DNA of 64,000 nt from Chitinophagaceae bacterium (GTDB lineage Bacteria > Bacteroidota > Bacteroidia > Chitinophagales > Chitinophagaceae): assembly GCA_022841365.1 (NCBI GenBank), contig JALHRP010000005.1, forward strand, positions 1 to 64,000, written 5' to 3'. The number at the start of each line of letters is the position of its first letter. Within the stretch, counting starts at the first letter, position 1. Below are positions 26,966 through 28,108 of the stretch, piece after piece. The position numbers and the translations under genes were made by a program. A model generated the notes under the pieces. The model did no database searches. It was not told the origin of the DNA and worked only from the letters and a program-made list of their open reading frames with translations.

Positions 26966-26985
26966 AAAGGCGACATGTCGCCTTT
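26966..26985. terminator. 20-bp perfect palindrome at the integrase stop codon (terminator or operator)
   Basis: AAAGGCGACATGTCGCCTTT overlapping the integrase TAA. Confidence 0.5.
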
Positions 26986-28108
26986 ACCATTCAATGGTTC
27001 CCTTTTCCCAAATATCGTCAAGCGGACTGCTGATGTTTACAAGTTTTTCTCGTGTAACATGGAGGTATCGTTCGGTAGTTTTAATGCTAAAATGCCCTAG
27101 AATATCTTTTATAAAACGAATGTCAACCCCTTTTTCAAGTAAGTGTGTGGCAAAACTATGTCGCAGGCTGTGAAAACTTACATGTTTCTGTATGCCGGCT
27201 TTTTCTTTTGCTCTTTGAAAAACCTTTTGTGCCGTACGAGAAGGGTAGGGCTCGTTTTCTACTTCACCTTCAAATAGAAATGTCTTCGGTCTTTTCTTTT
27301 GTTCTTTCAGGTAAGAACGGAGTACATCTAGAAGTATAGGGCTTAATGTTACATATCTGTCTTTCTTTCCCTTCGCTTTTTCAATCAGAATCTGCATTCG
27401 ATCACTATCTATATCACTCATTTTTAAACGAACAGCTTCACTCACACGTAGCCCTGCACTGTATGCAGTAAACAAAATGGCTTTATGTTTTTTGTTTGTA
27501 ACAGCATTAAATAGCCGGGCTATTTCCTGTTCTCCCAAGACCTTGGGGAGTATGATATGTTTTTTGGGCCTTGGTATCTCCCAAAAAAATTTCTCTCGTT
27601 TCAATACCTGCTCATAATAAAACTTCAACGCATTCAACCTGCTGTGCAACGTATTCTCCGACAGCTGCAATTTTACCACACAATACAGCATGTATCGCTT
27701 CAAATGTTCTGGAGTTAAATCCTGCACATGAAGGTCTTTCAGCAATTGTAATAATTGCATAAACTCATTTCGGTAGGTTTGTAAAGTGCTCTTACTGTAT
27801 TTCTTTAATGCCAGTTGTTCCAGATAGAGTAACAACTGTTCTTTGTTGTTGGCCGATAGCCGTATGGATGATGTTTGTACTTTTTGCTGTTGTATACTTA
27901 ATGCAGTGGCGGGTTCTATTCCACATTTTTTCCGATTTTCTTCATTGTCTGGCAAATGCCATCCTTTTAAGCTGCTGCTCCAGCGGGCATCTGCTACTTG
28001 TTTAATGCGTTGGTTCCATGCGGTATTATGTGCAAACTGTACGAGTATTCTCGACTTTCCTCTGTATACTATCAGTTGGTAATTGATCTTACTCATGGCG
28101 CTGTTCAT
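26984..28108 (-). CDS. Tyrosine recombinase / integrase
   Basis: AGLRVSEAVRL (R), KGKKDRYV (K), HSLRHSFATHLL (HxxR), LGHFSIKTTERYLHV (H..Y), SPLDDIW C-terminus; N-terminal extension ARWSSSLKGWHLPDNEENR. Confidence 0.95.
   Translation of the reverse strand: MNSAMSKINYQLIVYRGKSRILVQFAHNTAWNQRIKQVADARWSSSLKGWHLPDNEENRKKCGIEPATALSIQQQKVQTSSIRLSANNKEQLLLYLEQLALKKYSKSTLQTYRNEFMQLLQLLKDLHVQDLTPEHLKRYMLYCVVKLQLSENTLHSRLNALKFYYEQVLKREKFFWEIPRPKKHIILPKVLGEQEIARLFNAVTNKKHKAILFTAYSAGLRVSEAVRLKMSDIDSDRMQILIEKAKGKKDRYVTLSPILLDVLRSYLKEQKKRPKTFLFEGEVENEPYPSRTAQKVFQRAKEKAGIQKHVSFHSLRHSFATHLLEKGVDIRFIKDILGHFSIKTTERYLHVTREKLVNISSPLDDIWEKGTIEW

What the first reader, a model, noticed from the sequence alone, without database searches (positions are those of the whole stretch)
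26984..28108. Array-associated tyrosine recombinase that is not a classical IntI
All catalytic residues are recognisable (R in AGLRVSEA, K in KGKKDR, HSLRH, LGHFSIKTTERY). Between the K region and HxLRH there are only about 55 residues, with no sign of the extra IntI-specific segment (the KYPxAxxxWxWQYVFPS-type region). The C-terminal SPLD motif is shared with IntI proteins. The N-terminus carries an extra small module (VQFAHNTAWNQRIKQVADARWSSSLKGWHLPDNEENRK). If it recombines the attC-like sites, hairpin-site recognition would have to be achieved without the canonical IntI domain.
Basis: partly seen in the sequence, partly recalled or inferred. Interest (0 to 1): 0.82.

Follow-up and report, generated by a model that had tools for sequence, protein, structure and literature searches.

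The report
Integrons lacking the standard integrase domain
This gene encodes the recombinase of what looks like a genuine gene-cassette-capturing platform (an integron), widespread in Bacteroidota, but it lacks the protein domain until now considered essential for all integron integrases, so the textbook account of how integrons recognise their folded DNA sites does not cover it.

Summary
The 374-aa tyrosine recombinase (26984-28108, -) has all catalytic residues and lacks the IntI additional domain: K-to-HxLRH spacing is 72 aa, 66-75 across the family, against 111-112 in every canonical IntI. Downstream lie an attI site (26872) and five cassettes whose start and end words are exact complements. 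Relatives have similar arrays just 3' of the recombinase in 34 of 84 loci; 20 random control regions have none. The attC-like sites form long hairpins with strong covariation and a nearly invariant G.T pair that exists only in the folded bottom strand; they have no extrahelical bases. Across 300 Bacteroidota genomes these sites track this recombinase (83/96 vs 64/204, p=5e-20), not canonical IntI (12/60 where it is alone); the window's genome has no canonical IntI. The N-terminal module resembles the junction-binding HARP domain, on weak evidence. Best reading: an integron-type system that recombines folded bottom-strand sites without the IntI domain, a new variant. No recombination has been shown experimentally. 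Whether canonical IntI arose inside this lineage is unresolved (AU p=0.30). The held literature does not describe it.

The parts
26984..28108 (-). Tyrosine recombinase (integron-type integrase without the IntI additional domain), 374 aa; transcribed toward the array
   Evidence: best fold match: V. cholerae IntI-VCR complex 2a3v
27923..28096 (-). N-terminal module of the recombinase (residues 5-62), bbabba fold, HARP-like on weak evidence
26863..26892 (-). attI: conserved platform sequence 26892-26873, then the R'-like word GTTGGCTGCT (26872-26863), crossover G^TT
25828..26871 (-). Cassette 1 (ORF 26041-26829, 262 aa, no Pfam family)
   Evidence: start GTTGGCTGCT matches end AGCAGCCAAC 10/10
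25820..26027 (-). attC A (R'' AGCAGCCAAC 26027-26018; R' GTTAGGCAC from 25828)
   Evidence: (152 bits)
24857..25827 (-). Cassette 2 (ORF 25058-25813, 251 aa)
   Evidence: GTTAGGCAC matches GTGCCTAAC 9/9 (10)
24849..25049 (-). attC B (R'' GTGCCTAAC; R' GTAAGGTGCA from 24857)
   Evidence: (131 bits)
23847..24856 (-). Cassette 3 (ORF 24053-24832, RHS/YD-repeat-like)
   Evidence: GTAAGGTGCA matches TGCACCTTAC 10/10
23839..24045 (-). attC C (R'' TGCACCTTAC; R' GTTGTACGT from 23847)
   Evidence: missed by the detector because of bulges, read by eye
17831..23846 (-). Cassette 4, ~6 kb: HTH (23281-23499), 898-aa GHKL ATPase (20585-23281), 296 aa (19698-20588), 180 aa (19211-19753), C5 DNA methyltransferase (18178-19218)
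   Evidence: GTTGTACGT matches ACGTACAAC 9/9
17823..18027 (-). attC E (R'' ACGTACAAC; R' GTTGTGTGT from 17831)
   Evidence: (172 bits)
17307..17830 (-). Cassette 5 (ORF 17332-17826, 164 aa)
   Evidence: GTTGTGTGT matches ACACACAAC 9/9
17130..17320 (-). attC D remnant: R'' and most of the site present, 3' end diverged (array terminus)
   Evidence: 90-91% identity to two attC copies in G001 over 17141-17314

Best explanation
The gene is the integrase of a chromosomal integron-type cassette platform of Bacteroidota. It inserts circular cassettes at the attI next to its 3' end and excises them by recombining attC-like sites that act as folded bottom strands, with exchange at G^TT. It does this without the IntI additional domain (I2 helix region) and on sites without extrahelical bases. 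Strand polarity would come from the asymmetric unpaired spacer next to the R box and from an invariant G.T wobble in the stem. Shown by sequence comparison: domain absence, cassette architecture, hairpin covariation, bottom-strand asymmetry, attI break-point, association with this recombinase and not with canonical IntI. Inferred: that this enzyme is the catalyst, single-strand recombination, and a recognition role for the HARP-like N-terminal module.
For: Domain absence in the family. Five cassettes with exact 9-10 nt R'/R'' complementarity. Arrays 3' of the recombinase in 34/84 family loci, 0/20 random loci, no link with stem score 13 or more in 93 shuffled loci. Covariation: 13/19 and 18/20 stem pairs with compensatory changes, 0/500 shuffles reach the score. 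Invariant G.T in 18/20 and 26/27 sites; bottom G.T over top 98:33, 48 sites vs 6, p=3e-9; bottom strand folds more stably in 53/65 sites, p=2e-7. attI: upstream identity 70-93%, downstream 20-50% in seven pairs. Genome association 83/96 vs 64/204, p=5e-20; canonical-only 12/60; no canonical IntI in G000. Closest fold is IntI-VCR 2a3v.
Against: No recombination event was observed directly. 64 of 204 genomes without a detected recombinase still hold such sites (decayed integrases, CALIN-like clusters or other recombinases); fragments or stop-interrupted copies were seen in G016, G035, G048 and G052. Sixteen family loci with long downstream sequence show no array, including one whole clade. XerC/D could in principle act, as for CTXphi. 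Association tests do not correct for shared ancestry.
Confidence: 0.85

Rival explanations
1. The cassettes are mobilised by the host XerC/XerD (as CTXphi hijacks them) or by a canonical IntI elsewhere; the neighbouring recombinase is incidental.
For: G000 encodes XerC/D-type recombinases. The stems lack extrahelical bases, as CTXphi sites do (PMC4792948). Some genomes have the sites without the recombinase.
Against: Xer recombinases are nearly universal, yet the sites track this recombinase. attI and array sit directly 3' of it in many genera. No canonical IntI in G000 or in any other same-genus genome searched; canonical-only genomes are poor in these sites.
Confidence: 0.08
2. The recombinase acts on these sites as ordinary double-stranded DNA (classical two-strand exchange at palindromic cores); the hairpin is a by-product of palindromy.
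For: Without I2 and extrahelical bases the folded site resembles a plain duplex; IntI itself keeps a double-strand activity (PMC4792948).
Against: The G.T wobble and the excess of bottom-strand G.T pairs have no meaning in duplex DNA. The stem covaries while its sequence changes, so structure rather than sequence is conserved. The spacer is asymmetric.
Confidence: 0.05
3. A degenerate canonical integron: IntI that lost its additional domain and is now inactive.
For: Some relatives are decaying (G011 with HALRY and an internal stop; truncated copies in G005 and G013).
Against: Domain absence is shared by the whole family with intact catalytic residues in most members. Canonical IntI form one separate clade. 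attI-proximal cassettes differ between close relatives.
Confidence: 0.02

Closest known systems
Integrons with canonical IntI (IntI1; V. cholerae IntIA with VCR sites, PDB 2a3v)
   Same: Integrase + attI + array of attC-bounded cassettes; G^TT crossover; RYYYAAC/GTTRRRY-type core ends; bottom-strand hairpin with R and L regions, an unpaired central spacer and a large terminal structure; C-terminal SPLD; 2a3v is the best fold match
   Different: No additional I2 domain; no extrahelical bases but an invariant G.T wobble; long uninterrupted stem (19-20 bp); extra N-terminal module; integrase points toward the array with attI at its 3' end
XerC/XerD/XerA recombinases and Xer-using phages (CTXphi)
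   Same: K-to-HxLRH spacing; no I2 domain; CTXphi integrates as a folded single strand without extrahelical bases (PMC4792948)
   Different: Xer acts in trans on dif; here a dedicated integrase with its own attI and cassette array; Xer form a separate branch; score below the curated cut-offs of the XerC, XerD and XerA models
CALIN (clusters of attC sites lacking an integron integrase)
   Same: How domain-based tools would probably classify the array
   Different: An adjacent, associated recombinase and an attI are present
HARP domain (SMARCAL1, T4 UvsW)
   Same: Weak sequence similarity (PF07443 in 3 of 16 modules, best 2.3e-4) and top, non-significant fold match 4o66
   Different: Fused to a tyrosine recombinase; the window protein itself has no PF07443 hit; function untested

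Membership tests
Integron integrase (IntI) protein family | Tyrosine recombinase with R-K-H-R-H-Y catalytic set | tested here: met
Integron integrase (IntI) protein family | IntI-specific additional domain around patch III | tested here: not met
   72 aa between K and HxLRH versus 111-112
Integron integrase (IntI) protein family | TIGR02249 score over the curated cut-off | tested here: not met
   181 < 265 bits
Integron integrase (IntI) protein family | Falls inside the canonical IntI clade | tested here: not met
   canonical IntI is one clade (100/100) that excludes it
Integron (genetic platform) | attI adjacent to the integrase gene | tested here: met
   conserved element, break-point at G^TT
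Integron (genetic platform) | Tandem cassettes with imperfect-palindrome attC sites and complementary R''/R' ends | tested here: met
Integron (genetic platform) | attC recognised as folded bottom strand | tested here: inconclusive
   covariation and strand asymmetry support it; needs biochemistry
Integron (genetic platform) | Extrahelical bases in attC | tested here: not met
   ungapped stem pairing 89-96%, no common bulge
Integron (genetic platform) | Integrase-dependent recombination of attI x attC and attC x attC | not testable with these tools
   needs the bench
XerC/XerD | Score over the XerC or XerD curated cut-off | tested here: not met
   176 < 335 and 166 < 330 bits; separate branch
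HARP domain | Match to PF07443 above its cut-off | tested here: inconclusive
   3 of 16 module sequences match (best 2.3e-4), window protein none; top fold hit 4o66 at E=0.77

The most novel reading that the evidence does not exclude
Folding-dependent cassette recombination predates the IntI additional domain: canonical IntI arose within this domain-less lineage by later gaining I2 together with extrahelical bases, and in the older type the HARP-like N-terminal module recognises the hairpin's single/double-strand junction.
Probability: 0.3. Interest if true: 0.95.

Novelty: new variant of a known kind. Interest (0 to 1): 0.87.

Why it matters
Integron detection and theory rest on the IntI domain and on extrahelical bases in attC. 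IntegronFinder's authors reported only In0 in Bacteroidetes, later one complete integron in Salinibacter (PMC9024848), and the domain profile is part of how IntIs are called (PMC9668308). A common integron type with neither feature would mean that many Bacteroidia integrons have been missed. [quoted passage not shown]

Tried and rejected
Rfam scan found nothing relevant. Profile search of the N-terminal module against PDB sequences gave only chance hits. A phylogeny-aware test of the N-terminal module against arrays had too few independent pairs to decide; plain Fisher gave p=0.003, but six array loci lack a detectable module (some are truncated) and six array-free loci have it, so I do not claim the module is required. 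The AU test did not reject the domain-less family as a clade separate from IntI, so 'IntI nested inside' is only the best tree, not shown. The self-written detector misses bulged sites (it missed attC C) and canonical attC; one linked 285-nt 'site' in G253b is probably false. The phage/ICE-integrase reading was rejected: the relatives neighbour arrays, and no phage or ICE gene was noticed among the predicted ORFs next to it.

Full report
CHECK OF THE OBSERVATION. The ORF at 26984-28108(-) encodes a 374-aa tyrosine recombinase with PF00589 and a SAM-like core-binding domain. R221, K246/K249, H313, R316, H339 and Y348 are invariant in a 28-member alignment. The curated integron-integrase model TIGR02249 scores 181 bits against a cut-off of 265, in two stretches separated by the IntI-specific region. 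Counting from KGK to HxLRH, the window protein has 72 residues; the family 66-75 (a few fragments aside); XerC, XerD and XerA 73-77; all canonical IntI, including IntI1 and the crystallised V. cholerae enzyme, 111-112, with the KYPNAxxEWRWQYVFP segment (one mistranslated row, L118, set aside).

THE ARRAY. Reading the minus strand, the recombinase is followed after 111 nt by an attI-like word GTTGGCTGCT (G at 26872). It is the exact complement of the R'' end of the first palindromic site (AGCAGCCAAC, 26027-26018). The same rule holds for the next four cassettes: start words GTTAGGCAC, GTAAGGTGCA, GTTGTACGT and GTTGTGTGT are complementary to end words GTGCCTAAC, TGCACCTTAC, ACGTACAAC and ACACACAAC. 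This self-consistency is the signature of circular cassettes joined at G^TT. The last site (D) has lost its 3' end.

RELATIVES. The recombinase is found in 29 of 61 related genomes, including 11 of the 13 other genomes of its genus counting partial copies, and in 96 of 300 genomes of the phylum. A named relative of the same genus group is Lacibacter luteus. I fetched flanks and scored attC-like sites linked to an upstream complementary word. Thirty-four of 84 recombinase loci (window included) have such an array downstream in the same orientation. None of 20 random 18-kb regions from the same genomes has one, and no shuffled locus has a link with a stem of score 13 or more. In draft genomes, contigs end within 5 kb on the 3' side of the recombinase 34 times and on the 5' side 4 times (p=6e-7), as expected if repeats follow it.

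THE SITES. Sixty-five linked sites fall mainly into length classes of about 112, 147 and 176 nt. In two alignments the 19-20 bp stem shows compensatory changes in 13/19 and 18/20 pairs; no shuffle of 500 reaches the observed covariation. One pair, 15-16 nt from R'', is a G.T on the bottom strand in 18/20 and 26/27 sites and never becomes Watson-Crick; on the top strand it would be an A.C mismatch. Bottom-strand G.T pairs outnumber top-strand ones 98 to 33 (48 sites versus 6, p=3e-9), and the bottom strand folds more stably in 53 of 65 sites (p=2e-7). Such a pattern is meaningful only if the bottom strand acts as a folded single strand. Canonical attC sites achieve polarity with extrahelical bases held in pockets of the integrase (PMC2727003); these stems have no common bulges. 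The spacer is A-rich and short on the R'' side and about 5 nt on the R' side, similar in kind to the canonical unpaired central spacer.

attI. Upstream of the crossover the platform is conserved between relatives (consensus about TTGCGTATATWTARNGN|GTT), and identity collapses immediately after it: 70-93% versus 20-50% in seven pairs, for example window versus G013, 93% then 42%.

WHICH RECOMBINASE. The window's genome has no canonical IntI. Covariance models of the two site classes find 26 and 3 sites in it. Among 300 genomes the 112-nt class occurs in 83/96 with and 64/204 without this recombinase (p=5e-20). Where only canonical IntI is present it occurs in 12/60, where only this recombinase is present in 61/70. 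Site-bearing genomes without an intact copy sometimes hold fragments or stop-interrupted copies (G016, G035, G048, G052). These tests do not correct for shared ancestry. Four of the 32 other array-bearing genomes also carry a canonical IntI.

PHYLOGENY AND STRUCTURE. With insertion columns excluded, canonical IntI form one clade (100/100). In the best tree it lies inside the domain-less family rooted on Xer (82/92 for the enclosing branch), but a sister relation is not rejected (AU p=0.303). The AlphaFold2 model (mean pLDDT 85) matches best the V. cholerae IntI-VCR structure 2a3v. The N-terminal module folds as bbabba; its top PDB match is the SMARCAL1 HARP domain 4o66 (E=0.77, not significant) and 3 of 16 module sequences match PF07443 (best 2.3e-4). 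HARP domains are counted among junction-specific DNA-binding domains (PMC4666394). This is a lead, not a result; the module is absent or undetected in six array loci and present in six without an array.

INTERPRETATION. The locus works like an integron. The platform meets most of the integron features I could test, extrahelical bases being the exception; the protein fails the defining IntI feature. I therefore call it an integron-type platform with a non-IntI (domain-less) integrase, a new variant. Catalysis by this enzyme, single-strand recombination and the role of the N-terminal module are inferences.

NOVELTY. Ten full-text searches of open-licence papers found no description (one search was about HARP). 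IntegronFinder 2.0 reports only In0 in Bacteroidetes earlier and one complete integron in Salinibacter (PMC9024848). Escudero et al. [quoted passage not shown] Subscription literature and preprints were not searchable.

Noticed in passing
window 17831-23846 (-): Cassette 4 is about 6 kb and carries five genes (HTH, 898-aa protein with two GHKL ATPase domains, 296 aa, 180 aa, C5 DNA methyltransferase): a probable multi-gene restriction/defence module inside one cassette, unusually large.
   Followed up: partly
window 23690-23790 and 18090-18175: A ~95-nt hairpin-bearing element is duplicated at both ends of the cassette 4 module; relatives occur in fetched loci of G001, G005, G034 and G092.
   Followed up: no
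genome G000, contigs C1, C11, C36, C39, C140 and others: 26 sites of the 176-nt class and 3 of the 112-nt class lie in the genome, many on contigs other than the window's: dispersed cassettes or broken arrays.
   Followed up: partly
L041 (G011), L058 (G013), L066 (G005), G016:C39:3896-4336, G052:C1:188106-189212: Decaying integrases (catalytic H to Y plus TAG in G011; truncations elsewhere) next to arrays or in site-bearing genomes.
   Followed up: partly
phylum sample: Canonical IntI was over cut-off in 86 of 300 genomes of the phylum, but among the matches listed only one genome (G054) belongs to the window's own class.
   Followed up: partly
65 sites: Site lengths are quantised (about 112, 147, 176 nt; steps of roughly 30-35 nt); reason unknown.
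   Followed up: no
window 26963-26983: A perfect hairpin AAAGGCGACATGTCGCCTTTT directly after the recombinase stop looks like a terminator that would separate integrase transcription from the cassettes.
   Followed up: no
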